A DNA stretch of 40,814 bases from Candidatus Desantisiibacteriota bacterium (GTDB taxonomy: Bacteria > JACRDZ01), in the NCBI GenBank assembly GCA_016209155.1, contig JACQWU010000022.1, positions 1 to 40,814 of the forward strand, in the 5' to 3' direction. The notes under the pieces are model-generated. The model saw only the letters and a program-made list of their open reading frames with translations, ran no database searches and was not told the DNA's origin. Within the stretch, counting starts at the first letter, position 1. Each line of letters starts with the position of its first letter. This document shows, one piece after another, positions 3-28,514 of this stretch. The position numbers and the translations under genes were made by a program.

Positions 3-755
3 GGAGCTGTAGCAATATTGGTCAGTGATACTCCCCATGTTTTCCAAATTGATAAAGGTGCTAATGGATATTACGGATATGAAGTAATGGATACATGCCG
101 GCCTGTTCCTGATAGTGAGGCTGGTGATTCTGATTTATCTTTATTGTCCTATCTGGATTGTTGTGAACAGGCATTTTTGGAATATCAAAAACGTGTAACA
201 GGTGCGGATTATCGGCAAACATTCAATTATCTTGCTTTTCATACTCCTTTCGGTGGAATGATTAAAGGAGCGCATCGGACAATGATGCGGAAAATGGCTG
301 GAGCCAAACCCTCAGAGATTGAAATAGACTTTACGCAGCGTGTCATGCCAGGTCTGATTTACTGTCAACGAGTAGGGAATATGATGGGAGCCACTGTTTT
401 TATGTCGCTGGCAAGCACTATTGATAATGGTTGTTTTGATTCCCCCAAGCGAATCGGATGTTTTTCCTATGGATCAGGGTGCTGTTCTGAGTTTTATAGC
501 GGTGTTGTTACAACACGAAGCCAGGATATCCAGCGTCGTTTTGATATAGGCCGCTACTTGAGAGAACGCTATCAATTATCAATGGATGAATATGATGCTT
601 TATTAAAAAGCAATAGTGCAATTAAATTCGGCACACGAAATGTTTCATTGGATTTTCAATTATTTCCTAAAGCATTGACATTATGTCAGGGAAGAGAACG
701 TTTATACCTGGAAAAAATTAGAGAATTTCATCGTCAATACAAATGGATATCATAA
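3..755 (+). CDS. HMG-CoA synthase-like beta-branching enzyme (PksG type), 5' partial
   Basis: The reading frame is open from base 3, so the N-terminal part, including the catalytic Cys region, lies outside the window. About 250 C-terminal residues are present. The visible part matches the PksG/HMGS family: an FHTPFGGMIKGAH segment with the family's active-site His, and a GNMMGAT segment and GSGCCSEF segment typical of the C-terminal half. In trans-AT PKS pathways this enzyme adds an acetyl carbanion from acetyl-ACP to a beta-keto group on a carrier protein, the first step of beta-methyl branching. It stops 19 bases before the ECH2 gene, which acts later in the same reaction series. The donor ACP, decarboxylating KS and ECH1 that complete a cassette are not in the window and are presumably upstream. 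Family assignment is firm; the substrate is not visible. Confidence 0.9.
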   Translation, partial: GAVAILVSDTPHVFQIDKGANGYYGYEVMDTCRPVPDSEAGDSDLSLLSYLDCCEQAFLEYQKRVTGADYRQTFNYLAFHTPFGGMIKGAHRTMMRKMAGAKPSEIEIDFTQRVMPGLIYCQRVGNMMGATVFMSLASTIDNGCFDSPKRIGCFSYGSGCCSEFYSGVVTTRSQDIQRRFDIGRYLRERYQLSMDEYDALLKSNSAIKFGTRNVSLDFQLFPKALTLCQGRERLYLEKIREFHRQYKWIS

Positions 756-774
756 ATTGTTAGTGGAGAGAATA

Positions 775-1524
775 ATGTCAGAAGCAGTTGTTAAGGTACA
801 CGAAATAGAACAAGGTATTGTTCAATTGACTATGCAGGATCGGGTGAATAAAAATACGTTTTCCGAGGAAATGATCCTTGACCTGATCCAGTCATTTGAA
901 TTAATCAAATCCAATTTAAATTATAAGGTGGTAGTTTTAACCGGATATGATAATTATTTTGCTTCAGGAGGAACAAAGGAAGGTTTATTAGCTATACACC
1001 AGGGCAAGGCAAAATTTGCGGATAGGAACATTTATAGCCTTGCATTGGAATGTAAGATTCCTGTGATTGCTGCTATGCAGGGGCATGGAATTGGAGGCGG
1101 ATTTGTAATGGGATTATTTGCCGATTTTGTGATCTTAAGCAGAGAAAGTATTTATACAACTAATTTCATGAAATATGGATTTACTCCGGGAATGGGTGCA
1201 ACGTACATTGTACCTAAGAAACTAGGAATTAGTTTGGCAGAAGAATTATTGCTCAATGCCGGTAATTATCGAGGAGCAGAGCTTGAGAAGCGAGGCATTC
1301 CATTTCCTGTGTTGCCTCGAGAACAGGTCTTGGATCATGCATGTGAAGTGGCTAGACAATTAGCTGAAAAGCCGAGGATATCATTAATCACTTTAAAGGA
1401 TCATTTAACTACACCTCTTCGGGAAGAACTTCCTAAGGTTATTGAGCAAGAACTTGCAATGCATGAAAAGACGTTTCATCAAGAAGAAGTTAAAGATAGA
1501 ATTCTTGGATTATTTGGAAAATGA
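775..1524 (+). CDS. Enoyl-CoA hydratase-fold decarboxylase of the beta-branching cassette (ECH2, PksI-like)
   Basis: A 249-residue crotonase-fold protein. I chose ATG 775 because GTGGAGAG lies 4-5 bases upstream and the product then begins like PksI; a TTG six codons earlier has no such site. The sequence shows AMQGHGIGGGF (oxyanion-hole region) and NFMKYGFTPGMGAT, both characteristic of the ECH2/PksI group rather than ECH1/PksH. With this start, Lys80 and His230 occupy the positions I recall as catalytic in B. subtilis PksI. The family decarboxylates a 3-methylglutaconyl-ACP made by HMGS and ECH1, leaving a methyl (or exomethylene) branch on the polyketide. It sits between the HMGS gene and the PKS genes in one transcription direction, which supports a joint role. 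Which ACP it serves is not evident here. Confidence 0.9.
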   Translation: MSEAVVKVHEIEQGIVQLTMQDRVNKNTFSEEMILDLIQSFELIKSNLNYKVVVLTGYDNYFASGGTKEGLLAIHQGKAKFADRNIYSLALECKIPVIAAMQGHGIGGGFVMGLFADFVILSRESIYTTNFMKYGFTPGMGATYIVPKKLGISLAEELLLNAGNYRGAELEKRGIPFPVLPREQVLDHACEVARQLAEKPRISLITLKDHLTTPLREELPKVIEQELAMHEKTFHQEEVKDRILGLFGK

Positions 1525-1581: not shown

Positions 1582-2757
1582 GTGGACATACAAGAAATAT
1601 TACGTGCTTTAAAGGCAAGGGAAATAACTCCTGAAGAGGCGAAAAAGGAAATAACAAAAATAAAAACAATTAAAGAGCAATCCTCGAACTCTTTTGCAAA
1701 GTTATCTAAAAAACATGATGTTTCTATACAGTTACCAAATTTAAATTCTGCATGCATGGATTTGGAACAATCATGTACAAAAAATAAAGAAAATACACCG
1801 GAAATAGAATCTATAAGAGAAGAGAAAATTTCTTCACCAACGGATACTAAAGAGGCTATTGCAATCATTGGTATGTCAGGAAGATATCCCGATGCAGGTA
1901 ATTTGGAACAATATTGGGACAATCTGGTTCATGCAAAAAATTCGATCAGAGAAATACCTTTATCTCGTTGGGATGTAAATCAATATTATGACCCGCAACC
2001 TTTTAAAAAAGGGAAAATATACTGTAGACGCATAGGATTGCTGGAAAATATAGAATATTTTGATCCTTTATTTTTCAATATTTCACCTGTTGAAGCAGAA
2101 CTTATTGACCCGCAGCATCGTATTTTTATGCAAGAAGCTTATAAAGCATTTGAAGATGCAGGTTACAACAGTAGCTCATTAAACAACAAAAAATGCGGTG
2201 TCTATATGGGAATTATGAGTAATGAATACGGGATGATAGTGAATAAAAACTATCCTGAACTGACCAATACAACTGGTAACAGTTATGCAATTGCAGCAGC
2301 GCGGATATCTTATTTCCTTGATCTTAAAGGACCTGCCATTTCAATTGACACTGCATGTTCTTCATCATTGGTGGCAACACATTTAGCCTGTCAGGCATTA
2401 TTAAATAAAGAAATTGATATGGCATTAGTAGGCGGTGCAACTCTTTACTTAACACCGGAGTCATATATCGGTATGTGTGCATCTGGTATGTTATCACCAG
2501 AAGGTCAATGTAAAACTTTTGATAATAGTGCTGATGGTTTTGTTCCTGGCGAAGGCGTCGGGGCCATTGTATTAAAAAGATTAAAAGATGCTGAGGCTGA
2601 CAATGATAATATATATGGCGTTATCATCGGCTCGGGGATCAATCAGGATGGTAAGACAAATGGGATTACAGCTCCGAGCGTTAATGGTCAAATGGAATTG
2701 GAACGAGATATTTATGACAAATATAGTATCCATCCTGAAAGTATTAGTTACACTTAG
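1582..2757 (+). CDS. trans-AT PKS 1, N-terminal fragment: helical lead plus first part of KS1, ended by an in-frame TAG
   Basis: The start is GTG 1582: AGGAGA at 1570-1575 gives good spacing and the product opens with MDIQEILRAL and a KxREITPEEAKKEI helical motif common at trans-AT PKS N-termini. A TTG at 1555 is in frame but lacks a site. From about residue 92 the protein is a beta-ketoacyl synthase: IAIIGMSGRYP, FFNISPVEAELIDPQHR and the active-site DTACSSS with Cys codon 2356-2358. Translation stops at TAG 2755-2757, where KS homologs usually have Glu or Asp-Ala before HGTGT (expected Y-T-E-M-H-G-T-G-T). The frame continues without shift into 2758-10581, so this and the next entry are one ancestral gene of 3000 codons. 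The fragment alone lacks both catalytic His residues and should not condense. Nonsense mutation, sequencing or assembly error, and readthrough remain possible. Confidence 0.85.
   Translation: MDIQEILRALKAREITPEEAKKEITKIKTIKEQSSNSFAKLSKKHDVSIQLPNLNSACMDLEQSCTKNKENTPEIESIREEKISSPTDTKEAIAIIGMSGRYPDAGNLEQYWDNLVHAKNSIREIPLSRWDVNQYYDPQPFKKGKIYCRRIGLLENIEYFDPLFFNISPVEAELIDPQHRIFMQEAYKAFEDAGYNSSSLNNKKCGVYMGIMSNEYGMIVNKNYPELTNTTGNSYAIAAARISYFLDLKGPAISIDTACSSSLVATHLACQALLNKEIDMALVGGATLYLTPESYIGMCASGMLSPEGQCKTFDNSADGFVPGEGVGAIVLKRLKDAEADNDNIYGVIIGSGINQDGKTNGITAPSVNGQMELERDIYDKYSIHPESISYT
2755..2757 (+). other. In-frame amber codon inside KS1
   Basis: TAG interrupts a KS domain that is otherwise collinear on both sides with no frame change. 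It lies two codons before the first catalytic His. A single G-to-T change from GAG (Glu) would explain it, since the context Y-T-x-M-H-G-T-G-T matches KS domains with Glu at x. TAG also ends several intact genes here (for example at 26598, 28514, 31031 and 35113), so a general reassignment of TAG is unlikely. Confidence 0.9.
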
Positions 2758-5700
2758 ATGCATGGGACAGGAACAAAACTGGGAGATCCCATTGAATTAG
2801 AGGCATTATCTACAGTTTTCAAAGAAAGGACACATCAAAAAAAATTTTGTGCAGTAGGATCTGTAAAAAGTAATATCGGTCATACATCAGCAGCAGCCGG
2901 TGTGGCAAGTGTTCAAAAAGTAATATTATGTCTTAAGTATAAAAAACTGGTGCCGACATTACATTTTAAAAATCCTAATGAACATTTTAATTTTGATGAT
3001 TCTCCATTTTATGTCAATACCCAATTGCGGCCGTGGGAAGATAGAAAGGGAAAACTGCTGCGTGCTTGTGTAAGTTCCTTTGGGTTTAGCGGGACGAATG
3101 CCCATATTGTTATCGAAGAATATCGTCCCAGAAACGACATGGCTCAAACAGCGATGCTTATCAGTAAAGATAAGCCTGTTTTATTTGTATTCTCTGCAAA
3201 GAGGGAGCAGCAGTTGAAAATCTATGCGGAATGCATGAAGAATTGGATCGAATCCAATGAAGATTTTAATCTGTCAGATATGGCCTATACTCTGCAGATG
3301 GGCAGAGAGGAGATGGACTATCGCCTTGTTTTTATAGCAGATTCGAGAGAGGCATTACTTATAAAATTAAAGGGGTTTATCGAAAATAGTCACGTGGCAG
3401 GATTCCTTACTGCACAGGTAAAAAAGAGCAAAGATGGAGTGACAATTTTTGAAACTGATGAAGATGCTAAATCTTTGCTGAGAACTTGGATGAAAAAAGG
3501 TAAATTGAAAAACATAGCAGAATTATGGGTGAAAGGTTTAAATATGGATTGGGAAGAACTATATGACGATATCAAACCTCGCCGCATCAGCCTTCCAACC
3601 TATCCCTTTGCCTGTGAGCGATATTGGGTTCCTGCTATCAAAGCCGAATCTTCATGCGGTAAAGCAGCATACATTACTGCTGCTGATATTCATCCCTTGC
3701 TACACCGCAACACATTCGATCTTTCTGAACAACGATTTAGTTCCACTTTTACGGGTAAGGAATTTTTCCTGGCGGATCATATCGTGAATAGTCAGCGGAT
3801 ATTGCCTGGAGTAGCCTATCTTGAGATGGCCTATGCAGCGTTATGCAGGATCAAAGTTGGTACTGTGAAGGGTCTCTCGAACGTAGTCTGGCTGAGGCCA
3901 TTGGAGGTAGGAGAAAACAGCGTCGAGGTGCATATCATTATTAATGAGAGATATCAGTATGAGATTCAGAGTAGTGATCATGAGGGGCAGAGTCGCGTAC
4001 ACTGCCAAGGTGAGCTATGTCTGAACGATCACGAGGGAGGGAGAGAGCAGCGGCTGTTGATAGAAGAAATTAAGGTACGGTGTACGCATCGGATCGACAA
4101 CCAAACGCTTTATGAACGTATTCGCAAGTTCGGCATTGAGCATGGGCCATCAATGCAGGGAGTGTGTGAGGTGTGGGTTGGAAAAGATGAGGCATTGGCT
4201 GTACTGGAGGTGCCGCATGGTCGTGAAGACGTGGGCTACTACACATTGCATCCTGCGTTGATGGATGGAGCACTTCAAAGCATCGCAGGACTTATGGACG
4301 GATCCACTACTAACAATAGAAGTCCCAGACTGCCATTCAGTGTTGAGAGCATGGAAGTGCTGCATCCTATCAAAGCACAGGGTTATGCGTATGTAAAGGT
4401 GTCAGATAAGGAAAGATTTAATATAGAAATAACGGATAAGAGCGGACTGGTTTGCCTCAGGGTTTATAATCTTGCGTTGCGGGAAATGAGAGATCCTTTT
4501 GATTCGTTCTTCTACGTACCAACATGGAAAGAGGCATTTCAGACAGTTCAGACATCGAGGGAAACTAAACATGTAGGCAGGAGGATTATTATTATCTATC
4601 ATGAGGATAGCGGAGGACTTGAAAGGGAACTGGCAAAGGCGCATGCGGGAGATGAGGTAGTGATGTTGAAGCTCGGGAGTAAAACAGTAAGACATTCCGA
4701 GTATCACTGGGAAATAGAAGAGAAAGATCCTGAGTCACTGGGCAGGTGCGTTGAGCAGATCGAAGCACTGCATACGGTCTATCATCTTGGAGGCATTGGG
4801 GATAGTGAAGTCATTTTAAATGATCCGAAGTCATTGAAGCGGAGCCAAGAAAGAGGAGTAATATCTCTGTTTAGGCTGATCAAATCGCTTTCAAGGCAAG
4901 GATACTATCTGCGCCCTCTTAATCTCAAAGTGATCACCAATAATGTACATCAGGTGATACATGATGGAGATGCCATCAGACCTTATGGAGCGAGTCTTCA
5001 TGGATTGGTGAAGTCAGCGGCAAAGGAGTACCCGAAGTGGAGCTTAAGTTGTATTGACATCAGTTTGCAAGATATGCACGAGAAGCATCTCCTTGCAGAA
5101 GCGATCATTGCAGAACAGGGAAATCCGATGGGCAATGAGGTCGCAATCAGAAAGGGAAGGCGATATGTGCGGGTGATCGAGCCGATACTGCTGCCTGCGG
5201 TCAATCAGTCGCCATTTAAGCATGAGGGGGTATATCTCATTATAGGTGGAGCCGGGGGAATCGGGCTGGAGCTGAGCCGGCATTTAGCAGAGACAGTACA
5301 GGCGAAGCTCGTGCTTATAGGACGGAGCGAACTCAAGAAGAAACAGAAGGAGAAAATATCCCTCATAGAATCGAGAGGTGGGCAAGTGCTCTATCTACGA
5401 GCGGATATCACTGATCTTGAGAGCATGAGAAAGGCAGTCAAGGAAGCGAAGGTATGTTTTGGCAGAATCAACGGAGTGATACATTCGGCCATTGTGCTGA
5501 GAGATAAGACCATAGAAAATATGGATGAAGAGATGTTTATGGAGGCATTGAACCCGAAGGTGAAGGGCAGTTTGGTGCTTCGTGCGGCTATAGAGAGTGA
5601 TAAGTTGGATTTTATGATGTTTTTCTCCTCAGTTCAATCATTTATAGGAGCAGCAGGCCAGGGCAACTATGCTGCTGGATGTGCGTTCAAGGACGCCTTT

Positions 5701-8700
5701 GCGCAGTATCTCAATGCAACGGAGCCTTATCCAGTGAAGATTATCAACTGGGGATATTGGGGTAGTGTAGGAGTAGTGGACTCAGAGGAATACAACCGGC
5801 GGATGGCGGCCAAGAGGATAAGCTCGATCTTTCCTTCAGAGGGGATGGAAGCAGTGCGAAGGGTAATGGGTAATCGGACAAATCAGGTGATACCGCTTAA
5901 GGCAGACAGAGCAGTGCTGAAGCAACTGGGAGTGGATCTTGCATATCCTCTTCATCTCTATCCTCTCGAGATACCATCGGTACTGGATGGAGCTTTAAGT
6001 CAGGTCAGAGCACCTGAGATGGACAGTAGCATTCTGGAACAGCTTCCGAAGGCTATGGATGAGCTCGAGCGGTTTGGATCCCTATCACTGCTCGATGCCT
6101 TTCATCGGATGGGAGTATTTCATAGACACGATGAAAAATATGAGAAAGAGGAGCTTAAGAAGAAGCTAAAGATCATTTCTCGTTACTCCCGTCTATTTGA
6201 TGCACTGTTGCGCATACTGGAGCGGTCAGGATTCATTACACTCAAGGAAAAGGAAGTGTTTATTACAGAGGATTCAGCAATCATTAAAGTGCAGGATGCG
6301 GTAAAAGAATTTGAAAAGAAAAAAAATGAGTTAGCCCTCATTCATCTTGAACTCAGAGCTCATTTAAATTTACTATCAACCTGTGTGAAGGAATACCCTC
6401 GGATCCTTACGGGAGATATTCCAGCAACTGACATCATGTTTCCTCATACCTCAATGGAATTGGTGAAGGGGATATACAAAGGGAATTTGTTGGTGGACTT
6501 TTTTAACAGCTTAGTAGTCTGGAGCCTAAGAGCATACATTCAGGCACTGATCCCCAATTTAGGTAAGGATGATAAGATCAAGATTCTTGAGGTGGGTGCA
6601 GGGACAGGGGGTACCAGTGCAGCGATATTTGATGGGATCAGGGAATATAGAGAGCGATTGCAGTATTTATATACGGATATTTCTGTTGCATTTACTCAGT
6701 ATGGAGAGAAGCATTATGGCGGGGAAAATCCCTATGTCGAATTTAGAGTTCTAAATATTGAAGATGATCCAATAAATCAGGGGTATGGGGCTGGGGAATT
6801 TGATGTGGTAATCGGAGCCAATGTGTTGCATGCTACAAAAGCAATACGAACTACCCTTCGTAATATCAAAATACTCTTGAAGACAAACGGGTGCTTGATC
6901 ATCAATGAGCTTACAAAGAATAATAATTTTGCTACGCTTACCTTTGGGCTGCTGGAAGGGTGGTGGTTGTTTGAGGACGAGGAGAATCGTTTAAAGGGAT
7001 CTCCTCTGCTCAGCCCGGATTTGTGGGAGAGGGTTCTCAAAGAAGAGGGATTTGAGCGTGTGCATATAGTGCGGCAGTCTAATTCGAGTGTTCAAGAATC
7101 AGGCCAGAGCATTGTCATTGCTGAAAGCAACGGCATAGTAAAACAACTTCGATCACAAGCAATACCTGCTGAGAGGTCCATATCTGAGCCGCAGAGATCG
7201 AGGCATTCTCTTTCTGCTCCGCATGTTATAGTCAAGGGTTCTTGCAAACCAAATCAAGATGCAACAAGGTCACAGGACGAGGAGGCTCAACAGAAAACAG
7301 ATGAAGAGGATATCAGGCATTATGCAGAGGAGAAAATTATAGAATGTCTGATTTATGCCCTTAAGATTGATAGACGGCACTTTGATCCGATTACACCGTT
7401 CACCGAGTTTGGCGTTGATTCGATTCTTGCTGTTGAGATCATCAACCAGGTCAATGAGAAGCTAGGCGTTACTTTGAGGACGACTGACCTGTTCAACTAC
7501 TCAACTATCGGCATGCTCAGTGAATACATTGCCAAAGAGTTTGGCGAGATATTAATCTGCAAGACCACGACTCATAATAAAATGCCTGCTGAAATCAGGA
7601 CAGAGGAATTATTTAAGACCAATTCTGAGAGCAGCAGTATACAGAGAGAGACACAAGAAGGGGACAACTATGCAGCAGCATCAAACATCAAAGGAGAAGG
7701 TTTTAGGGATTGCGCACAAGAAACTACAAGGCATTCGTCTCAGACTACCCATGCAGAGGACTCAGATATAGCCATAATAGGCATATCGGGACGGTTTCCC
7801 GGAGCTAATGATATTAATGAATATTGGATGAATTTGAAAAGTGGAAAAAATTCAATAGATGAGTTAAAAAGATGGAAGTTAAACACATTTTATGATCCTG
7901 ATCCGCAAGCACCAGACAAGAGCTACTGCAAGTGGGGTGGGATGCTGGAGGACATTGATAAGTTTGATCCTCTGTTTTTCAATATCTCACCAAAAGAGGC
8001 TGAACTGATGGACCCTCAGCAACGGCTATTTTTAGAAGAGGCGTGGAAGGCTTTGGAGGATGCAGGTTATTCTGACAGGGAGCTTGAGGGAAAAAGGTGC
8101 GGAGTGTTTGTGGGCAGTGGAGCAGGAGATTATACAACCATCTTAAAAGAGAGGGATATATCTCCAGATGCGTATGCCTTCGTGGGAAACAGCCAGTCCA
8201 TTTTGGCAGCACGCATATCATATTTTCTGAATCTGAAGGGACCGGGGATTGCCATTGATACTGCCTGCTCATCGTCACTGGTAGCAATTCATTTGGCATG
8301 TGAGAGTATTCTGAGCGGGACATGCGAGTTAGCAATAACCGGAGGTGTGACTATCCTTACTACATCATCCTTTCATATCATGGCGAGTCGGGCAGGCATG
8401 CTATCTCCTGACGGGCAATGCAAGGTCTTTGACCATAATGCAAACGGTTTTGTCCCGGCTGAGGGTGTGGGGGCAGTAGTTTTAAAACCTTTGGAGCAAG
8501 CCCTCAGAGATGGGGATCATATATATGGAGTTATTGTTGGATCAGGGATCAATCAAGACGGGAGGACTAATGGAATCACAGCTCCCAGCGGACCATCTCA
8601 GACTGCATTGGAATGTGAAGTGTATAACCGATATAGGATTCATCCCGAGAGAATTACCTATATAGACGCACACGGCACCGGGACCAAGCTTGGGGATCCG

Positions 8701-10581
8701 ATTGAGATTAATGCACTGACGAATGCTTTTAGAAAATACACAGATAAGAGGCACTTCTGTGCAATCGGATCAGTGAAAACCAATATCGGACATACAAATA
8801 TGGCTGCTGGGGTTGCCAGCTTGATCAAGGTACTCCTTTGTTTGAAACACAAGGAAATTCCATCCTTACTCAATTTTGAACGTGTAAACAAACATATTAA
8901 TTTTGAAGATAGCCCATTTTATGTGAATACTGAGCTTAAGGGTTGGGAAACAGAGAATGGAGTTCCAAGGTATGCTGCTGTCAGCTCATTTGGCTTTAGC
9001 GGAACGAATGCTCATTTAGTGGTCAGAGAGGCATGTGAACAAAAAATGAGGCAAAGAGTAAGCTCCTCAAGGTCTTGGCATCTTATTGTGCTTTCAGCGA
9101 AAACTGAAGAGTCTCTTAGACGCAAGTGGAAAGATCTTATAGAATGGCTTGAAAATGAGGAAGACGGTCACCTCATAGAAGATATTGCTGGAACATTACA
9201 GATTGGAAGAAGTCATTTCCAAATTCGTTTTGCAACAGTAGTAAGCAATGCAGGTGAGCTTAGGAAAAACCTTAGGGCTATTATAGAGGGCAGAGAGGCG
9301 AGCGATTATCTCACTGGGACACTCGACGAAGGACAAACTAAACTTGAGCCTTCGCTGAAACTGCTTGGAAAGAAACTGATTGATGATCTTGAAAATATTG
9401 GGATTCCTGAAATTGAATACAAAGATAAGCTTATGACCTTAGCAAATCTGTATATAAAGGGTTATGACATAGATTGGAATAGGATATATACTAATGGAAC
9501 ATGGCATCGTATTGCCCTACCAACCTATCCTTTTGCTGAAGAGCGATATTGGATACCGGAACAAAAGACTCCTAAAGCTGTAAATGATGGAAGACATCAT
9601 TTCACAAAACTGCATCCATTGATTGATGCAAATACATCTACCTTGGAAAAGCATGAATTTACCGTGCAGCTGAGAGGTAATGAATTTTATCTCGCAGACC
9701 ATATCATAGTAGGGAATAAAGTGCTGCCGGCAGTTGCCTATATAGAAATGGCACGCGCAGCAGGAGAGATAGCAGGTAAAAAGAGGGTGCGGTCCATTAG
9801 GAATCTTGTCTGGATGAAGCCCTTGATCATAGAAGATCAGCCTCAAGACGTGTGCGTGAGCTTGAATCTGAATGGTAAGGCGGTTGATTATAAGATAAGC
9901 AAGATTGAAGAAAATGGACGGAGTACATTGCATTCTCAGGGAACAATTGAATATGATGATAATGAAAACAACCTGTCTAATCCTAATGTAATTAATATTG
10001 AGACAATTAGAAAGAGATGTTGTGGATTAAAGAGTAGAGAGGATTTCTATAAAGAATTTCATAGTAAGGGGTTAAAGCTTGGACCTAGTTTTCAATCAAT
10101 TCAGGAACTATTGATCGGTGACACCGAAGTAGTATCCCGCATAAAGTTACCGGATAGTCTTGCAGAAGGAGCGCATGAGTTTATCTTGCATCCTGCATTA
10201 ATGGATGGAGCATTGCAGACAGTTTCAGGTCTGATAGGAAATGATGTGAGAGAGTGCTCTGAAACTGTTTATGTTCCATTTTCGATAGGAGAAGTTCATA
10301 TACATGGACATTTGGCAAAAGAGTGCTTTGCTTATGTAACCATGACGCCTGTGCAGTCTGTTACTGATTACAGCGTGTCTAAATTTGATATTTGGATAGT
10401 AAATGAAGAAGGATACGTATTGATACACTTAAAAGATCTCTCGGTTAGAGCGCTAGATAATACATCAAGGGCTTCAAAGGAAGCACGTGATGAGGAGATA
10501 ATAAGTTTATTGGAAATGCTTAGTAGTAGTAAATTGTGTGCTGATGATGTTGAGCAGCGTATTATGAAAGGGGATAAGTGA
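2758..10581 (+). CDS. trans-AT PKS 1, main part: rest of KS1, DH, KR, cMT, ACP, KS2, DH
   Basis: This is the same frame as the preceding fragment, after the TAG. Domain order by nucleotide: rest of KS1 to ~3120 (His codons 2761 and 2881); post-KS linker ending in LPTYPFACERYW (~3588-3630); DH1 3691-4480 (His 3778 in HIVNSQRILP, Asp 4264 in ALMDGALQ); KR with structural part 4504-5905 (GGAGGIG, Ser 5629, Tyr 5668); C-methyltransferase 6040-7120 (EVGAGTGGTS); ACP 7315-7545 (Ser 7420 in GVDSI); KS2 7765-9020 (Cys 8266, His 8671 and 8791); linker to ~9565; DH2 9610-10470 (His 9700, Asp 10204). There is no AT domain. Module 1 would give an alpha-methyl enoyl unit. Module 2 ends after its DH and is completed by the KR-ACP at the start of the next protein, whose GTG overlaps this TGA by four bases. 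ATG 2758 directly follows TAG, so re-initiation could at most make this fragment. Confidence 0.9.
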   Translation: MHGTGTKLGDPIELEALSTVFKERTHQKKFCAVGSVKSNIGHTSAAAGVASVQKVILCLKYKKLVPTLHFKNPNEHFNFDDSPFYVNTQLRPWEDRKGKLLRACVSSFGFSGTNAHIVIEEYRPRNDMAQTAMLISKDKPVLFVFSAKREQQLKIYAECMKNWIESNEDFNLSDMAYTLQMGREEMDYRLVFIADSREALLIKLKGFIENSHVAGFLTAQVKKSKDGVTIFETDEDAKSLLRTWMKKGKLKNIAELWVKGLNMDWEELYDDIKPRRISLPTYPFACERYWVPAIKAESSCGKAAYITAADIHPLLHRNTFDLSEQRFSSTFTGKEFFLADHIVNSQRILPGVAYLEMAYAALCRIKVGTVKGLSNVVWLRPLEVGENSVEVHIIINERYQYEIQSSDHEGQSRVHCQGELCLNDHEGGREQRLLIEEIKVRCTHRIDNQTLYERIRKFGIEHGPSMQGVCEVWVGKDEALAVLEVPHGREDVGYYTLHPALMDGALQSIAGLMDGSTTNNRSPRLPFSVESMEVLHPIKAQGYAYVKVSDKERFNIEITDKSGLVCLRVYNLALREMRDPFDSFFYVPTWKEAFQTVQTSRETKHVGRRIIIIYHEDSGGLERELAKAHAGDEVVMLKLGSKTVRHSEYHWEIEEKDPESLGRCVEQIEALHTVYHLGGIGDSEVILNDPKSLKRSQERGVISLFRLIKSLSRQGYYLRPLNLKVITNNVHQVIHDGDAIRPYGASLHGLVKSAAKEYPKWSLSCIDISLQDMHEKHLLAEAIIAEQGNPMGNEVAIRKGRRYVRVIEPILLPAVNQSPFKHEGVYLIIGGAGGIGLELSRHLAETVQAKLVLIGRSELKKKQKEKISLIESRGGQVLYLRADITDLESMRKAVKEAKVCFGRINGVIHSAIVLRDKTIENMDEEMFMEALNPKVKGSLVLRAAIESDKLDFMMFFSSVQSFIGAAGQGNYAAGCAFKDAFAQYLNATEPYPVKIINWGYWGSVGVVDSEEYNRRMAAKRISSIFPSEGMEAVRRVMGNRTNQVIPLKADRAVLKQLGVDLAYPLHLYPLEIPSVLDGALSQVRAPEMDSSILEQLPKAMDELERFGSLSLLDAFHRMGVFHRHDEKYEKEELKKKLKIISRYSRLFDALLRILERSGFITLKEKEVFITEDSAIIKVQDAVKEFEKKKNELALIHLELRAHLNLLSTCVKEYPRILTGDIPATDIMFPHTSMELVKGIYKGNLLVDFFNSLVVWSLRAYIQALIPNLGKDDKIKILEVGAGTGGTSAAIFDGIREYRERLQYLYTDISVAFTQYGEKHYGGENPYVEFRVLNIEDDPINQGYGAGEFDVVIGANVLHATKAIRTTLRNIKILLKTNGCLIINELTKNNNFATLTFGLLEGWWLFEDEENRLKGSPLLSPDLWERVLKEEGFERVHIVRQSNSSVQESGQSIVIAESNGIVKQLRSQAIPAERSISEPQRSRHSLSAPHVIVKGSCKPNQDATRSQDEEAQQKTDEEDIRHYAEEKIIECLIYALKIDRRHFDPITPFTEFGVDSILAVEIINQVNEKLGVTLRTTDLFNYSTIGMLSEYIAKEFGEILICKTTTHNKMPAEIRTEELFKTNSESSSIQRETQEGDNYAAASNIKGEGFRDCAQETTRHSSQTTHAEDSDIAIIGISGRFPGANDINEYWMNLKSGKNSIDELKRWKLNTFYDPDPQAPDKSYCKWGGMLEDIDKFDPLFFNISPKEAELMDPQQRLFLEEAWKALEDAGYSDRELEGKRCGVFVGSGAGDYTTILKERDISPDAYAFVGNSQSILAARISYFLNLKGPGIAIDTACSSSLVAIHLACESILSGTCELAITGGVTILTTSSFHIMASRAGMLSPDGQCKVFDHNANGFVPAEGVGAVVLKPLEQALRDGDHIYGVIVGSGINQDGRTNGITAPSGPSQTALECEVYNRYRIHPERITYIDAHGTGTKLGDPIEINALTNAFRKYTDKRHFCAIGSVKTNIGHTNMAAGVASLIKVLLCLKHKEIPSLLNFERVNKHINFEDSPFYVNTELKGWETENGVPRYAAVSSFGFSGTNAHLVVREACEQKMRQRVSSSRSWHLIVLSAKTEESLRRKWKDLIEWLENEEDGHLIEDIAGTLQIGRSHFQIRFATVVSNAGELRKNLRAIIEGREASDYLTGTLDEGQTKLEPSLKLLGKKLIDDLENIGIPEIEYKDKLMTLANLYIKGYDIDWNRIYTNGTWHRIALPTYPFAEERYWIPEQKTPKAVNDGRHHFTKLHPLIDANTSTLEKHEFTVQLRGNEFYLADHIIVGNKVLPAVAYIEMARAAGEIAGKKRVRSIRNLVWMKPLIIEDQPQDVCVSLNLNGKAVDYKISKIEENGRSTLHSQGTIEYDDNENNLSNPNVINIETIRKRCCGLKSREDFYKEFHSKGLKLGPSFQSIQELLIGDTEVVSRIKLPDSLAEGAHEFILHPALMDGALQTVSGLIGNDVRECSETVYVPFSIGEVHIHGHLAKECFAYVTMTPVQSVTDYSVSKFDIWIVNEEGYVLIHLKDLSVRALDNTSRASKEARDEEIISLLEMLSSSKLCADDVEQRIMKGDK

Positions 10582-13500
10582 GTAAACAAAGTTTAGACCT
10601 GAAAAAAATTCTTGAAATGGTGAAAAACAAACAAATAGCACCAAAAGAGGGATTTAAGTTAATCAAGCAGGTTCAACAGGGGATATCACAGGCAATAGAA
10701 GTTGCTGGTGATTTGGAGAACTCTGCTTCTCTCTATTATCAAATGCAATGGGAAAAGTCTGAAGCACCTGCAGAAAGTGAAAAAAAGAATCCATTGGCGA
10801 GTGTTTTGCTTTTTGCCACTGATGAGGGGGTATTTAAAACAATACAAAATCTAAAAGATTATGAAGGGAATGAATCATCAGTGATAATGGTTAAATATGG
10901 TGAATCTTATAGGGCTTTTGGTAAGCTGATATATGAAATTAATCCAGAAAGCCGTGAGGATTACTATCACCTCATCAAGGAACTGAGGAAAGAGGAATTG
11001 CTGCCGAGTAAAGTTATTTACCTCCGATCAGGAAAATCTTTATCCAATAATGAAGAAATCCTAATATCTCAGTTCAGGCAAGATGTATATCCAGTACTGT
11101 TTCTGAGCCAAGCAATTCTCGATGAGGGGATAAGAGATAAAATCAAATTTCTTTACATCTATTTATGTCAGAGCGATGAGCTGTACCCTCAGTATGCAGC
11201 AATGGGTGGATTTGCAAGGTCTGTTCACCTTGAGAACCAGAGGTTCTTTTTCAAGGTGATTGGTGTACGGAGTATGTCAAACTCCAATCAAATTGCCAAT
11301 ATAATAGCGTATGAATTTGAAACTGAAGATGCTGAGGCTGAGGTCTTATATGACGGAGATAACCGGTTAATAAGGCGTTGGAAGGAGATTGAAACAGAAA
11401 ATGACAAGGGAAAATCAGTACAATTGAGAGACAGGGGAGTGTATGTGATCACAGGCGGAACAGGCGGACTTGGACTGATCTTTGCTGAATATTTAGCCAA
11501 AAATGTGAGGCCGAGATTGGTGCTGGTAGGACGTTCCGAACTAACTGCGGACAAACAGAAAAGGATAAAAGATATAGAGGCATTGGGGGCTGACATAGAG
11601 TACATCAGGGCTGATGTATCCAAAAGAGAAGAGGTTGAAGAACTTATAGCCAAGATAAAGTCTCGCTTTATGGAAGTTCATGGCGTAATTCACGCTGCAG
11701 GAGTGATCAATGATTCTTTTGTAGTGAAGAAAACAAAGGAAGAGATGGATGAAGTCCTGTCTCCGAAGGTGTACGGAACAATCTGGTTAGATGAGTTGAC
11801 AAAAGAAGAGCCATTGGACTTTTTTATAACGTTTTCCTCAATAGCGGGGATAATAGGTAATATAGGGCAATGTGATTATGCATATGCAAACAGCTTTATG
11901 AACTATTATGCTGAAAAGAGGGCGGCATTAGGACGGCACGGCAAAACTCTTTCCATTATATGGCCATTGTGGAAAAAGGGGGGAATGAGAATTGATGAAC
12001 AGACAGAGAAATTATTGAGCGACACAATGGGAATAAGATTGATGGATCGAGAAACTGGACTGATGGCGATTGAAAAGGGGTTAAGATTGGGAGGAAGCCA
12101 TCTTATTCCCTTGGTAGGCGATACAGATAAAATAAGGCTTAGATTTGATAATATAGAAAGTCTGTCTTTATTAAAGACAGATGCCATGCAAACTTTGACG
12201 CAAACAGATGAGGTGAGTTTAACGAAAAATCTTCAAAAGGATATGTTGAGTCTCGTGTCGGATATTTTGAAGATCGATGAGAAAAGAATCAATCTTGATA
12301 GTAGCCTGACTAAGTTTGGATTTGACTCCATAACTTTTACAGAACTGGCAAATAAGATCAACGATAAGTATCACATTACCATTATGCCCACGGTGTTCTT
12401 TGAGCATTCATCTTTGAGATCAATAGTTTCATATTTGATCAAAGAACAAAGAGACAGTATGATTTATTACTACAAGAGCAAAATGAGCGTACCGATCAAT
12501 GCGTTAGCTGACAGTTTGATACAGAAAAAAGCTGATGAGAAGATAGCGGAGACGGAAACGATAGTCCGATCTCGGTATAATAAAAGTCACGAGGAGTTCA
12601 GAGAGCAAGGAAGGACGGCTATAAAAGATAATATAGCAATCGTTGGGATGAGTGGAGTAATGCCACAATCAGAGGATCTTGAGGAATTTTGGAGACATTT
12701 AGAGGAAGGTAGAGATATGATCACTCAAATTCCTATAGACCGGTGGGACTGGAAGGAATACTATGGCGACCCGATAACAGAGGCTAACAAGACCAACATA
12801 AAGTGGGGCGGATTCATGAAAGAGGTGGATAAATTTGATCCCCTGTTTTTTAATATCTCACCTTATGAAGCAGAACTGATGGATCCTCAAGAAAGAATTA
12901 TCATTGAATTGATATGGAAGACCATAGAGGATTCCGGATACAGGGCATTGGATTTCTCAGGTACAAAGACCGGACTTTTCATTGGGATATCTAGTGCAGA
13001 CTACCGAGAGTTAATGATAGAGCAACACATGTCAATGGGAGTAAGTCAATCAATAATAGCCAATCGAGTATCTTACTGCTTTAATTTTCGAGGTCCGAGT
13101 GAACCTGTGGATACAGCCTGCTCAAGCTCACTAGTCGCAATTCATCGTGCTGTAGAAGCGATCCAAAATGGCCATTGTGATACTGCGTTTGCAGGAGGGA
13201 TCAATGTTATTGCGAGTCCGAATTTGTATGTTGTGTTCAGCAGAATGGGTGCTCTCTCTGACAATGGCAAGTGTAAGACCTTTGACAAAAATGCGAACGG
13301 GTATGTCAGAGGAGAGGGAGCAGGGATTCTCATGCTCAAGTCTTTGAGCAGGGCTGAGGCAGATGGAGATTATATTTACGGCGTAATTAAGGGGACAGCG
13401 GTAAACCATGGAGGCCGTGCCAGCTTTTTTACCGCACCTAATCCCAATGCCCAGGCAGAGGTGCTGATAGAAGCTTATGAGAGAGCAGGAGTAGACCCTT

Positions 13501-16500
13501 CGACATTGAGTTACATAGAGACGCATGGAACAGGGACAAGTCTTGGGGATCCTATTGAAATTGAGGGTTTAAAGAAGGCATTCAAGGAGCTCTATAAGAG
13601 ATGTAATAAACCTATATCGAAAAAGGCGCACTGTGGATTAGGATCAGTAAAGACTAACATAGGTCATTTGGAAGCAGCATCAGGTGTGGCAGGTGTGATC
13701 AAGGTATTATTAGCTATGAAGCACCAGCGGCTCCCAGGATTGCTTAATTTTAAGGAGATGAATCCATATATTCAGTTAGAAGGCAGTCCTTTTTATATCA
13801 TAACCGAGTCAATGGCATGGGGTCGCTTAAGGGATGAAGAGAAAATGCCTATACCGCTTAGGGCAGGAGTGAGCTCTTTTGGCATGGGAGGGGTTAATGC
13901 TCACGTAGTGCTTGAGGAGTATAGGGACAATAATAAACAAATCATAGCAGAAAATAAGGAGACCCAGGTGTTTGTGCTATCGGCAAAGAATGAAAAGCAG
14001 TTGAAGGAGTATGCCGAGAAGATGGTAAAATTTTTTGACAGGGCATTTGATAAAAAAGAGGTTACCATTGCTAATATCGCCTATACGCTCCAGGTGGGCA
14101 GGGAGGCAATGGAAGAACGGCTTGCACTCATAGTGTCAAGCATACAGGATTTGAAAGAAAAGTTATCTCAATATGCTCAGGGAGCAGAGCATATTGAAAA
14201 TGTATATAGAGGAAATGTAAAAGCGAATAAGGGTATATCAGAACTTTTGGATGGAGGAGAGGAAGAGCATGCATTCATCAGGAGATTAATAGCTGTCAAA
14301 AGGATTAGCAAACTTGCGCAGATGTGGGTGTCAGGAGTAAATATCGAATGGAAGTTACTTCATGAATTGCAAACTACACGCCGTATCGCTCTACCGACTT
14401 ATCCATTTGCAAGAGAGAAGTGCTGGATACCAAAAATAGAACAAGCAGCTGTTATCGCAAGCAACAAACAAGTGCAAGTAACTGAAAGTAGTAACCTGAT
14501 ACATAATAACTATGTCAAAAATTTTGAGCAGGAACAGAGTATAATACCTCATCAAATAGTTAAAAATACGAATTTGGAGAATACAGAAGTACTATTTACT
14601 GCTACCTCAGAGTATTTTAAGAATGTATTTTCATCTGCATTAAAAATAGATTCGAAGATGATTGATATTGAAACAGATTTTCAGGAATATGGACTTGACT
14701 CAATTATGGTTAACCAGCTCAATAAAATCTTAGAAGGAAAGTTTGGCAAATTATCTCCAACATTGCTTTTCACACACAAGAATATAAAAACCTTAACCGG
14801 ATATTTTGTGAAGAACTACATTGAAAAATTGAGATATATCATTGGAGTGTCCCAGAATAATAATAAAGTTAATCTTACAACATCAAAACAGGAGAGACAA
14901 ATAGGAGAGGTCATCAAGGAGACAAGCAATAAGGATTCGTATAATGAAGAAATCGCAATCATCGGTCTAAGCGGGCAATTTCCCTTAGCCAGTAATGTAG
15001 ATGAGCTCTGGGAGAATTTAAAAGCAGGAAGAGATTGCATTACTGAGGTTCCCAAAGAGAGATGGGATTATAAAGAGTTTTATGATCCGGAAAAAAGGAA
15101 AATAGGGAAAACATGCTGCAAGTGGGGCGGATTCCTTAAAGAAGTGGACAAGTTCGATCCCGCTTTTTTCAATATAAATCCCGAAGAAGCTGTGATAATG
15201 GATCCGCAGGAGAGGTTGTTTTTACAAACCGTATGGGCATGCCTTGAGGACGCAGGATATACGCGTACAATGTTAAAAGATAATAATACAAAAGACATAG
15301 GTGCGGCTGTAGGGGTATTCGTAGGAGCGAGTTTTCATTCCTATCCGCTGCACGTTGCGGAACAATGGAAAAAAGGTGTATTAGTCCCATTACATACGCA
15401 AACATTTTCCATAGCAAATCGCATATCGTATTTCTTTAATCTCAGCGGTCCGAGCGTCTCAATGGACACTGCGTGTTCTTCATCGCTTTATGCCCTCCAT
15501 CTTGCCTGTGAAAGCATTAGAAGAGGAGAATGCAGGTTTGCAATAACCGGAGGAGTGAATCTTCCATTGCATCCCAGTCAATACATAACTCTATCTGCGG
15601 TAGGCATGCTTTCCGCTCAGGGTCATTGCCGATCATTTGGTGAAGGCGCGGATGGGATGGTTCCCGGAGAAGGTGTAGATGCAGTACTTCTGAAACCTCT
15701 TAAAGATGCAATAAGAGATCGAGATCATATCTATGCTGTAATTAAGGGAACTGCTGCAAATAATGACGGCAAAACCTATGGTTATACTACCCCGAATCCG
15801 ATTGCCCAGTCTGAAGTCATCAGGAAGGCCTTAACGAAATCGAATGTGGATACTAAAACAATAAGTTATATTGAGGCGCATGGAACCGGCATTGTCTTGA
15901 GCGATACGATAGAGATAGAAGCATTGAGCAACGCATACGAATCTTATTCAAAAGAGAGGAACTATCGCGCGATCGGATCCATAAAATCCAATATTGGCCA
16001 CATAGAAGCACCGGGTGGAATAGCTGGCTTAATTAAAGTGCTGCTACAGATGAAATATAAACTATTAGTACCTTCGATTCATTCTGAAAAATTGAACTCA
16101 CATATAAATTTTGAGAACACACCTTTTTATGTTCAACAGAAACTGGAAGAATGGAAACAACCGGTTATAGAGGAAAATGGAAAAGTTAAAATATATCCGA
16201 GACGCGCAGGCCTGAGTTCGTTCGGCGCAGGTGGAGTAAACGTACATATTATAGTAGAAGAGTATCCTTCTTTTGGCGCAGACCATAGTTGCACGGGCAA
16301 GGATAATCTAATTCCTTCAGCTTCATCACTAATTAATGCTGTAATGAATGAGGTAAGGCCATTATTGATTCAGTCGTTTAATAAAATCGACATAAACCTC
16401 TATGAAAAAGGATATAAGGATTTGAATAAGTGGACCCGTCTTTTGCTGTTAAACGCTTTCCAAAATATGGGCCTATTTAATAAATCCGAAGAAAGATATC

Positions 16501-18014
16501 AAAGACGTGAATTGGTGGAGAGGCTGAATATTCTAGTAAAGTACCGGCAACTGTTCGATGGTCTCCTTACTATATTAACGCAAGGCAGATTTCTTAAAAA
16601 AGACGGTGATGTTATAGCGTGCACCTCAAGAGTAGAAAGTGAGGAAACAAAGAAGCATCTTATGAATTTGGAACATACCAAGGAAGATCTAATACAAAAA
16701 TATCCATTATTAAAATCATACTTGTCTCTGCTCTGGATATGCATAAGCAATTATCCGGATATCCTGACCGGGAAAAAATTGGCAACAACTGTTATGTTTC
16801 CTAACTCTTCTATGGAATTGGTGGAAGGTATATATAAAGCTTTCAGCAAAGAATTTTCAATGGTCGCAAAATGCATAGGTTCATATGTTAAAAGGCGATG
16901 TGCGGAGTTGGGCGAGGGGGAAAAGATAAACATTCTCGAAATAGGAGCAGGAACAGGGGGAACCACGGTTTCAGTATTGGAAGCAATAGAAGAATATAGT
17001 GATAAAATACGGTATGTCTATACGGATGTATCAATAGGCTTTTTGTTTCATGGAGAGAATTTGTACGGTAAAAAATATGATTTTATGGAATTTAAATTAT
17101 TAGACATTGAAAAGAGTGCATTTGAACAGGGCATTAAGCAAGCCGAATATGACATTATTATCGGTGCTAATGTTTTCCATGCAACCAAAAAAATGGATAA
17201 CACATTACTGAATGTAAAAGAGTTGCTGAAGACAAATGGGCTATTGATTATGGAGGAAACAACTTCCAAAGTAGACTTTTTATTATTGACATTCGGCTTA
17301 TTAGATGGATGGTGGCTATATGAAGATAAAGAAAACCGTATTGAGGAATCTCCACTACTCAATATAGATAGTTGGAAGAGGTTGTTAGAAAAAATTAATT
17401 TTCAGAATGTTGGCTTTTTAGGTTATCAAGGCTCGATGCAACATATGATAGTGGCAGAAAATAGCTGTGTTCAGAGAATAGAATATCCTCTTTGTGAGTT
17501 TAAGGCACTAAACCATATAATCCTGCCCATATCAGCAATGAATAAGCAAAGCCTCTACTCTAATGCCAAACAGCTGAAGGATTTTTTGCGAAAGAACAAA
17601 GAACAAAGAAACTTTATATTGCTACTTGAGGATATTGCTTATACTTTGCAAGTTGGGAGAGAGCCTATGCGGCACAGGCTGGCCTTTACTGGCAAGACTC
17701 ATGATGAAATAATCGAGAAAATAGATATGTATCTTAATACTCCCCTCAAGAAAGTTGATATGTTTGAATTAAATAATGTTTCTCTGGACGAAATTGATTT
17801 AAAAGAAAAGACCTTTATTGGTAAAAAGGTTGATGCAGAGCAAATGAATAACCTTATTCAGCAAGGGGCAATGGACAAGTTGGCTGATCTATGGGTACAA
17901 GGAATGGAGGTTGATTGGAACTCACTTTACATGGGATACAAACCATCACGTGTCTCATTGCCTACTTATTCCTTTCTCAAGGAACGATATTGGGTATCTG
18001 ATAAAAATGGTTAA
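10578..18014 (+). CDS. trans-AT PKS 2: KR, ACP, KS3, ACP, KS4, cMT, post-KS linker
   Basis: The start GTG overlaps the previous stop (GTGA) and the first ~35 residues repeat the helical lead of PKS 1 (LDLKKILEMVKNKQIAPKEG), a likely docking element. Domains by nucleotide: KR structural part from ~10730 and Rossmann part 11440-12130 (GGTGGLG; FSSIAG; QCDYAYAN); ACP2 12234-12444 (Ser 12327 in GFDSI); KS3 12630-13920 (Cys 13119, His 13524, 13665); linker to ~14430 (LPTYPFAREKCW); ACP3 14610-14810 (Ser 14700 in GLDSI); KS4 14952-16262 (Cys 15474, His 15879, 15999); C-methyltransferase 16350-17460 (EIGAGTGGTT); then a lone post-KS linker 17505-18011 ending in LPTYSFLKERYW. It is 2478 residues long with no AT. 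KR-ACP completes the module begun by the DH at the end of PKS 1; KS3-ACP3 has no reducing domains. KS4 has HGTGI and LSDTIE instead of HGTGT and LGDPIE. The protein ends without ACP or thioesterase. Confidence 0.92.
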   Translation: MSKQSLDLKKILEMVKNKQIAPKEGFKLIKQVQQGISQAIEVAGDLENSASLYYQMQWEKSEAPAESEKKNPLASVLLFATDEGVFKTIQNLKDYEGNESSVIMVKYGESYRAFGKLIYEINPESREDYYHLIKELRKEELLPSKVIYLRSGKSLSNNEEILISQFRQDVYPVLFLSQAILDEGIRDKIKFLYIYLCQSDELYPQYAAMGGFARSVHLENQRFFFKVIGVRSMSNSNQIANIIAYEFETEDAEAEVLYDGDNRLIRRWKEIETENDKGKSVQLRDRGVYVITGGTGGLGLIFAEYLAKNVRPRLVLVGRSELTADKQKRIKDIEALGADIEYIRADVSKREEVEELIAKIKSRFMEVHGVIHAAGVINDSFVVKKTKEEMDEVLSPKVYGTIWLDELTKEEPLDFFITFSSIAGIIGNIGQCDYAYANSFMNYYAEKRAALGRHGKTLSIIWPLWKKGGMRIDEQTEKLLSDTMGIRLMDRETGLMAIEKGLRLGGSHLIPLVGDTDKIRLRFDNIESLSLLKTDAMQTLTQTDEVSLTKNLQKDMLSLVSDILKIDEKRINLDSSLTKFGFDSITFTELANKINDKYHITIMPTVFFEHSSLRSIVSYLIKEQRDSMIYYYKSKMSVPINALADSLIQKKADEKIAETETIVRSRYNKSHEEFREQGRTAIKDNIAIVGMSGVMPQSEDLEEFWRHLEEGRDMITQIPIDRWDWKEYYGDPITEANKTNIKWGGFMKEVDKFDPLFFNISPYEAELMDPQERIIIELIWKTIEDSGYRALDFSGTKTGLFIGISSADYRELMIEQHMSMGVSQSIIANRVSYCFNFRGPSEPVDTACSSSLVAIHRAVEAIQNGHCDTAFAGGINVIASPNLYVVFSRMGALSDNGKCKTFDKNANGYVRGEGAGILMLKSLSRAEADGDYIYGVIKGTAVNHGGRASFFTAPNPNAQAEVLIEAYERAGVDPSTLSYIETHGTGTSLGDPIEIEGLKKAFKELYKRCNKPISKKAHCGLGSVKTNIGHLEAASGVAGVIKVLLAMKHQRLPGLLNFKEMNPYIQLEGSPFYIITESMAWGRLRDEEKMPIPLRAGVSSFGMGGVNAHVVLEEYRDNNKQIIAENKETQVFVLSAKNEKQLKEYAEKMVKFFDRAFDKKEVTIANIAYTLQVGREAMEERLALIVSSIQDLKEKLSQYAQGAEHIENVYRGNVKANKGISELLDGGEEEHAFIRRLIAVKRISKLAQMWVSGVNIEWKLLHELQTTRRIALPTYPFAREKCWIPKIEQAAVIASNKQVQVTESSNLIHNNYVKNFEQEQSIIPHQIVKNTNLENTEVLFTATSEYFKNVFSSALKIDSKMIDIETDFQEYGLDSIMVNQLNKILEGKFGKLSPTLLFTHKNIKTLTGYFVKNYIEKLRYIIGVSQNNNKVNLTTSKQERQIGEVIKETSNKDSYNEEIAIIGLSGQFPLASNVDELWENLKAGRDCITEVPKERWDYKEFYDPEKRKIGKTCCKWGGFLKEVDKFDPAFFNINPEEAVIMDPQERLFLQTVWACLEDAGYTRTMLKDNNTKDIGAAVGVFVGASFHSYPLHVAEQWKKGVLVPLHTQTFSIANRISYFFNLSGPSVSMDTACSSSLYALHLACESIRRGECRFAITGGVNLPLHPSQYITLSAVGMLSAQGHCRSFGEGADGMVPGEGVDAVLLKPLKDAIRDRDHIYAVIKGTAANNDGKTYGYTTPNPIAQSEVIRKALTKSNVDTKTISYIEAHGTGIVLSDTIEIEALSNAYESYSKERNYRAIGSIKSNIGHIEAPGGIAGLIKVLLQMKYKLLVPSIHSEKLNSHINFENTPFYVQQKLEEWKQPVIEENGKVKIYPRRAGLSSFGAGGVNVHIIVEEYPSFGADHSCTGKDNLIPSASSLINAVMNEVRPLLIQSFNKIDINLYEKGYKDLNKWTRLLLLNAFQNMGLFNKSEERYQRRELVERLNILVKYRQLFDGLLTILTQGRFLKKDGDVIACTSRVESEETKKHLMNLEHTKEDLIQKYPLLKSYLSLLWICISNYPDILTGKKLATTVMFPNSSMELVEGIYKAFSKEFSMVAKCIGSYVKRRCAELGEGEKINILEIGAGTGGTTVSVLEAIEEYSDKIRYVYTDVSIGFLFHGENLYGKKYDFMEFKLLDIEKSAFEQGIKQAEYDIIIGANVFHATKKMDNTLLNVKELLKTNGLLIMEETTSKVDFLLLTFGLLDGWWLYEDKENRIEESPLLNIDSWKRLLEKINFQNVGFLGYQGSMQHMIVAENSCVQRIEYPLCEFKALNHIILPISAMNKQSLYSNAKQLKDFLRKNKEQRNFILLLEDIAYTLQVGREPMRHRLAFTGKTHDEIIEKIDMYLNTPLKKVDMFELNNVSLDEIDLKEKTFIGKKVDAEQMNNLIQQGAMDKLADLWVQGMEVDWNSLYMGYKPSRVSLPTYSFLKERYWVSDKNG

Positions 18015-27630: not shown

Positions 27631-27656
27631 ACAATTATAAAATATAAAGAGCAAAT

Positions 27657-28514
27657 ATGAAAACATATGTTTTTCCTGGACAAGGGACTCAAAGAGTAGG
27701 TATGGGTAAGGATCTATTTGAAGAATATAAAAATCTGATTTCGATAATAAATGAAATATTGGGTTATTCTATTGAGGAACTTTGTTTAAAAGATCCGGAG
27801 AACAATCTAAATAAAACACAATATGCTCAACCTGCAATATTCGTTGTTAATTCGTTGGCATATTTAAAAAAAATAAAGGAAACCGTAATTAAACCTGATT
27901 TTGTTATAGGACATAGTCTTGGAGAATATAATGCGTTATTTGCTGCCGATGCTTTTAATTTCGAAACAGGATTAAAATTAGTCAAAAAACGCGGAGAGTT
28001 AATGAGTCGTATGTTGGATGGTGGAATGGCTGCTATTATTGGTTTGTGTGATAATGATATTAAGAGAATAATAAATGATAATGAACTTAATACATTAAAC
28101 ATTGCAAATTACAATACTCCATTACAAATAGTAATCGCAGGACCAAAATCCGACATAATTAAATCTCAAACAGTTTTTGAAAAAAATGGATGTGCATTAT
28201 TTGTTTTATTAAATGTTAATGGAGCATTTCATACACATTATATGGAAGCAGCCAAAAGAGAATTTGATGTTTTTTTAAAAGATATTTCTTTCTCAGAATT
28301 ACAAATTACTGTTATAGCAAATATAACAGGAAAGCCCCATAAAAATAATGAAATTAAAAAAAATCTGGTTGAACATTTTACAAATCCTGTTAGATTTACA
28401 GACAGTATCCTGTTTTTGCTTTCTCAAGGCGTATCTCAATTTGAAGAAATCGGAGAATCAAAAGTTTTAACAGGATTAATTCAAAAAATGAAAAAAGAAA
28501 TAAAACCACAATAG
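27657..28514 (+). CDS. Discrete malonyl-CoA:ACP transacylase (trans-AT)
   Basis: 285 residues, FabD/PksC-like. It has PGQGTQ at the N-terminus, GHSLGE with nucleophile Ser87, Arg112 in VKKRGELMS for malonate binding, and catalytic His192 in GAFHTHYMEAA. These are the residues of a working malonyl transferase, so this is the best candidate to load all ACPs of the AT-less PKS proteins. It follows the hydrolase-like gene by 26 bases and shares its low GC. A housekeeping fabD cannot be excluded, but the neighbourhood (no fabH, fabG or acpP) argues for the pathway enzyme. It ends with TAG. Confidence 0.9.
   Translation: MKTYVFPGQGTQRVGMGKDLFEEYKNLISIINEILGYSIEELCLKDPENNLNKTQYAQPAIFVVNSLAYLKKIKETVIKPDFVIGHSLGEYNALFAADAFNFETGLKLVKKRGELMSRMLDGGMAAIIGLCDNDIKRIINDNELNTLNIANYNTPLQIVIAGPKSDIIKSQTVFEKNGCALFVLLNVNGAFHTHYMEAAKREFDVFLKDISFSELQITVIANITGKPHKNNEIKKNLVEHFTNPVRFTDSILFLLSQGVSQFEEIGESKVLTGLIQKMKKEIKPQ

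What the first reader, a model, noticed from the sequence alone, without database searches (positions are those of the whole stretch)
2700..2800. Amber codon splits the first KS domain of an otherwise continuous 3000-codon PKS gene
TAG 2755-2757 sits between catalytic Cys (2356) and first catalytic His (2761), in frame, with no shift on either side. One base change from GAG restores a normal KS. It is followed at once by ATG, so TAG-ATG could allow re-initiation and make a two-piece KS. TAG ends at least four intact genes nearby, so recoding is unlikely to be general. Either the pathway is dead in this strain, the base is wrong, or there is suppression or re-initiation.
Basis: partly seen in the sequence, partly recalled or inferred. 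Interest (0 to 1): 0.75.

Follow-up and report, generated by a model that had tools for sequence, protein, structure and literature searches.

The report
Chance stop codon in polyketide gene
A single in-frame stop codon cuts the first condensing domain of a large polyketide-making gene in an incomplete metagenome-assembled genome; everything tested points to an ordinary chance nonsense change (a real broken copy or an assembly error) and not to a recoded or deliberately split gene.

Summary
TAG at 2755-2757 lies in frame between the catalytic Cys (2356) and the first His (2761) of the first KS of a trans-AT polyketide synthase, and the frame continues unbroken to 10581. The KS is closest in sequence to the bacillaene-synthase PksL KS. 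Its relatives carry an acidic residue at the stop position, and the closest two read E-M-H-G-T-G-T, so the ATG after the stop is the normal Met codon of this subtype. That ATG has no Shine-Dalgarno pairing. The genome is a 352-contig MAG, 79% complete. In 1.13 Mb of it TAG ends 83 of 482 long genes, RF1 is present, no PylS was found, and none of the 29 tRNAs found reads UAG. In-frame TAA, TAG or TGA also interrupt other conserved genes (CheB, Lon, DHH-CBS, a YafQ-like toxin), at roughly one per 160-230 kb, so the event is neither unique nor amber-specific. The rest of the PKS cluster is open. Best reading: a chance nonsense substitution, either a recent real null allele or a consensus error. 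Reads were not available to separate these two. Re-initiation or readthrough is not excluded but has no positive support.

The parts
1582..2757 (+). PKS piece 1: docking/linker region and N-terminal part of the first KS, ending at the amber codon; likely GTG start at 1582
   Evidence: PF00109 308.8 bits, PF02801 positions 1-47 only; SD pairing -8.7 kcal/mol before GTG 1582
2356..2358 (+). catalytic Cys codon (DTACSSS) of the interrupted KS
   Evidence: sequence read
2755..2757 (+). in-frame amber codon at a position that is acidic in the related KS domains
2758..2760 (+). ATG directly after the stop; native Met of the E-M-H-G-T-G-T subtype, no Shine-Dalgarno pairing
2758..10581 (+). PKS piece 2: rest of the first KS (both catalytic His), DH, KR, methyltransferase, ACP, second KS, DH; one unbroken frame
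   Evidence: Pfam; ORF list
10578..18014 (+). second PKS gene: KR, ACP, KS, ACP, KS, methyltransferase; intact
   Evidence: Pfam; no stops inside its KS matches
3..755 (+). HMG-CoA synthase-like protein, cut by the contig start (beta-branching cassette)
   Evidence: NCBIfam TIGR01835 107 bits, below its cut-off as the protein is truncated
757..1524 (+). enoyl-CoA hydratase-like protein of the beta-branching cassette
   Evidence: NCBIfam NF005496 391 bits
26650..28514 (+). two stand-alone genes read as acyltransferases (trans-AT) from their sequence
   Evidence: ORFs 26650..27630 and 27657..28514; assignment from the GHSLGE/GSSMGE-type motifs, no profile search run
30489..31031 (+). 4'-phosphopantetheinyl transferase-like protein
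   Evidence: NCBIfam NF042922 141.7 bits, below its cut-off

Best explanation
The amber codon is a chance nonsense substitution at a conserved acidic position in the first KS of a PksL-like trans-AT polyketide synthase. It is either a recent real null allele in the sampled population or a wrong base in the metagenome consensus. If real, translation ends at 2757 and leaves a KS fragment that has the Cys but neither His, so the product of this assembly line is probably not made by that genotype. Shown: the stop, the frame, the conserved acidic residue and native Met in relatives, no amber-decoding tRNA or PylS found, and other in-frame stops in the same genome. Inferred: loss of function, and the split between a real mutation (somewhat more likely) and a consensus error.
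For: Single stop in a 3012-codon frame with full KS profiles on both sides. The residue at the stop is Glu or Asp in every genuine KS motif read from the related loci and in the seven other KS motifs read in this genome. PksL KS (PDB 5erf) and a Paenibacillus brasilensis KS carry Glu-Met there. In-frame stops of all three kinds interrupt other conserved genes of the genome: CheB (TAA), DHH-CBS (TAA), Lon (TAG), YafQ-like (TGA). A genome of the same phylum shows what looks like the same kind of event in a histidine kinase, TAA (read by eye). The source is an assembly in 352 contigs, 78.8% complete. TAG is a normal stop: 83 of 482 long ORFs, with no coding signal after TAG and no clear excess of backup stops over TAA. 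No CUA tRNA among 29, no PylS.
Against: The rest of the cluster is open: 2607- and 2478-codon frames here and a 6522-aa PKS ORF on contig C290. A long-dead pathway would show more damage, so the event must be recent, or the base wrong, or the stop tolerated. Absence of a suppressor tRNA is not proven in a genome that is 79% complete with only 29 tRNAs found.
Confidence: 0.9

Rival explanations
1. Consensus error or strain mixture in the metagenome assembly: the organism's KS gene is intact and the base at 2755 is wrong. (This is one half of the best explanation, given separately because reads would decide it.)
For: Fragmented assembly. Sporadic in-frame stops in several otherwise well-conserved genes. 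The rest of a PKS system of more than 11,000 codons is undamaged.
Against: No read data here. The genome also has clear real decay: a frame-broken kinase/HD region and an ABC gene cut short before an IS1634 transposase fragment in the same window, so real null mutations are expected too.
Confidence: 0.38
2. Two-piece KS by termination and re-initiation at TAG-ATG: ribosomes stop at 2757, restart at 2758, and the two fragments assemble into a working KS.
For: ATG abuts the stop, and piece 2 keeps both catalytic His and all downstream domains.
Against: Met at this place is native in the closest relatives, so the ATG needs no special explanation. SD pairing before 2758 is -0.4 kcal/mol, weaker than the median random site (-2.2), while 15 other starts in the window range from -2.1 to -12.3. 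The cut falls inside the KS fold between Cys and His.
Confidence: 0.03
3. Readthrough or suppression of UAG: a tRNA inserts an amino acid at low or regulated level and full-length PKS is made.
For: The position tolerates at least Glu and Asp within this genome's own KS domains. RF1 of this genome lacks about 46 aa of domain I compared with the one relative aligned, and its profile match starts at position 55 where 30 relatives start at 2-13, which could in principle weaken UAG termination.
Against: No CUA tRNA among 29 tRNAs and no PylS. RF1 keeps its PVT and GGQ motifs. TAG ends 17% of long genes, with no coding signal after it. TAA and TGA interrupt other genes too.
Confidence: 0.04

Closest known systems
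PksL ketosynthase of the bacillaene synthase, Bacillus subtilis (PDB 5erf, 5eny, 5e5n)
   Same: Matches along the whole domain (761 bits, query residues 2-430) with the same SISY-x-x-MHGTGT context, native Met included.
   Different: Intact, with Glu where the window has the amber codon. Whether the product of the window cluster resembles bacillaene was not determined.
Nonsense-mutated (pseudogenised) secondary-metabolite genes in bacteria
   Same: One stop in an otherwise open biosynthetic gene.
   Different: No sign of further decay in the gene, and the source is a metagenome-type assembly, so error is possible.
Amber recoding (pyrrolysine, suppressor tRNA, TAG-recoded lineages)
   Same: An in-frame TAG with continuing homology after it.
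   Different: No PylS or CUA tRNA found, RF1 present, TAG widely used as a stop, and the interruptions are not restricted to TAG.

Membership tests
trans-AT modular polyketide synthase | KS-bearing modules without built-in AT, acyltransferases encoded as separate genes | tested here: met
   No AT domain among the Pfam hits of either PKS protein; two stand-alone AT-like ORFs at 26650-28514, read from motifs only
trans-AT modular polyketide synthase | RhiE-type linker after the KS | tested here: met
   PF22336 RhiE-like_linker 134.9 and 136 bits
PksL-like KS subtype | closest solved KS is PksL, over the full domain | tested here: met
   among single-domain matches PksL is best by far (761 bits against 415 for the next); the multi-KS chain 7zma sums two domains of about 410 bits each
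functional type I KS | Cys-His-His triad on one continuous chain | tested here: not met
   triad codons are present but an amber codon lies between Cys and the first His
Amber-recoded genome | tRNA with CUA anticodon | tested here: inconclusive
   none among 29 tRNAs found, but the genome is 79% complete
Amber-recoded genome | TAG rare or absent as a gene end | tested here: not met
   TAG ends 83 of 482 long ORFs in 1.13 Mb
Pyrrolysine system | PylS | tested here: not met
   no match at E <= 0.001 in G000; one control genome over the cut-off; genome incomplete
Translationally coupled split gene | start codon with SD, or a stop-start junction conserved in relatives | tested here: not met
   no SD pairing; relatives have an uninterrupted Glu-Met or Glu-Thr there

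The most novel reading that the evidence does not exclude
The KS is made despite the stop, either by UAG readthrough helped by a release factor 1 with a shortened domain I, or as two chains restarted at TAG-ATG that reassemble into a working ketosynthase.
Probability: 0.05. Interest if true: 0.6.

Novelty: already known. Interest (0 to 1): 0.08.

Why it matters
Little, as it stands. It warns that this cluster should not be assumed productive, or its sequence taken as correct, without reads. If readthrough or a two-piece KS were shown, it would be an unusual way to make a ketosynthase.

Tried and rejected
(1) General TAG recoding: rejected by stop usage, RF1 and the tRNA survey. (2) Pyrrolysine: no PylS. 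(3) Evolved TAG-ATG restart: the Met is native in relatives and there is no SD. (4) Backup-stop enrichment after TAG as a sign of leaky termination: 55% after TAG against 52% after TAA and 65% after TGA, no difference that favours it. (5) Another copy of the same DNA: an exact-pattern search of viral contigs found none, and the relatives search returned no genome of the same genus or family. (6) HMGS split across C290 and this contig: the C290 end carries no HMGS piece and no overlap. (7) Several in-frame stops fall on positions that look acidic in relatives, which hints at one kind of base change, but this rests on about five cases, read by eye outside the KS, and was not pursued. (9) Paper searches gave nothing on point.

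Full report
What is there. The window is contig C43 (40,814 bases) of an assembly of 3.08 Mb in 352 contigs, 78.8% complete, 2.3% contaminated, which I take to be a metagenome-assembled genome. The nearest genomes returned belong to other families of the same phylum. The first 31 kb carry part of a trans-AT polyketide cluster: a truncated HMG-CoA synthase, an enoyl-CoA hydratase, two large PKS genes, a CoA ligase, a KAS III-like protein, transporter genes, two stand-alone AT-like genes and a phosphopantetheinyl transferase. Contig C290 of the same genome carries further modules in one open frame (6522 aa from its GTG), plus an enoyl-CoA hydratase, a KSDC-like KS and a PfaD-like protein (these last names are from reading the sequence).

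The stop. TAG 2755-2757 is in frame with both flanking ORFs. The catalytic Cys codon is at 2356, the two catalytic His codons at 2761 and 2881. A read-through profile search finds 12 KS C-terminal matches in the genome, and only this one has a stop inside. With X at the stop, both KS halves match their Pfam models end to end.

What stood there. Eight KS motifs were read in this genome: six have Glu, one has Asp, and the eighth is the amber. All genuine KS motifs in the related loci have Glu or Asp; the remaining motif hits are judged to be other frames or unrelated sequence. The closest solved KS is that of PksL from the bacillaene synthase, 761 bits along the full domain, and it reads SISYVEMHGTGT against SISYT-stop-MHGTGT here. 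The 75%-identical Paenibacillus brasilensis KS also has Glu-Met. The Met codon after the stop is thus the ordinary residue of this KS subtype and needs no explanation as a start.

Is it re-initiation? The 17 bases before the ATG (3-base spacer left out) pair with the anti-Shine-Dalgarno at -0.4 kcal/mol, weaker than the median of random sites (-2.2). Fifteen other starts in the window range from -2.1 to -12.3. Coupled re-initiation without an SD is possible in principle and is not excluded, but nothing supports it.

Is it recoding? In 1.13 Mb of this genome, long coding ORFs end in TAA 288, TGA 111 and TAG 83 times. The stretch after TAG has no coding signal, and backup stops are about as frequent as after TAA (55% and 52%). 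Twenty-nine tRNAs were found and none reads UAG. There is no PylS. RF1 is present with its PVT and GGQ motifs. The genome is incomplete, so a missing tRNA is not proof.

Is it special? A scan for coding signal on both sides of an in-frame stop, followed by Pfam with X at the stop, showed the same kind of event in CheB (TAA), a DHH-CBS protein (TAA), Lon (TAG) and a YafQ-like toxin of a toxin-antitoxin pair (TGA), with one or two weaker cases. In the Lon and DHH cases the stop falls between or at the edge of Pfam domains, so continuity there also rests on reading the flanking sequence by eye. That is about one per 160-230 kb, in all three stop codons. A sample of a genome from the same phylum shows what looks like one in a histidine kinase (by eye). 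The PKS stop belongs to this background.

Real or error? Reads are not available here. For a real mutation: the genome does hold decayed genes, for example the kinase/HD region at 38325-40215 (two frame breaks) and the ABC gene at 28843 that ends just before an IS1634 transposase fragment. For an error: the remaining cluster is undamaged, and fragmented assemblies carry wrong bases. I put a real nonsense allele slightly ahead. In either case the feature is ordinary.

An oddity. RF1, the factor that reads UAG, lacks about 46 residues of domain I compared with the one relative aligned, and its profile match starts at 55 while those of 30 other genomes start at 2-13. It is the only thread by which a readthrough story could be continued. 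Since TAG is a common stop here I give it little weight.

Noticed in passing
L176 (G000:C117) about 6400-7340, + strand: RF1 (prfA) lacks about 46 aa in domain I; the profile match starts at position 55 where 30 other genomes start at 2-13. GGQ and PVT motifs are intact.
   Followed up: partly
window 38325-40215, - strand: Kinase-like and HD-domain pieces in overlapping frames: a decayed gene with at least two frame breaks.
   Followed up: partly
window 28843-30158, + strand: ABC transporter ATPase cut short (match ends at profile position 110 of 137), followed at once by a partial IS1634-family transposase.
   Followed up: no
L116:1294 (-), L143:2384 (+), L146:3976 (+), L115:5055 (+): In-frame stops inside CheB, DHH-CBS, Lon and YafQ-like genes; several sit at positions that look acidic in relatives, which may reflect one mutational or error bias.
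   Followed up: partly
L114 and L136 (G000:C290): Further modules of what may be the same trans-AT cluster: a 6522-aa PKS ORF with four KS C-terminal matches, and beta-branching cassette genes. The contig end after the PKS stop has an inverted repeat and no HMGS piece.
   Followed up: partly
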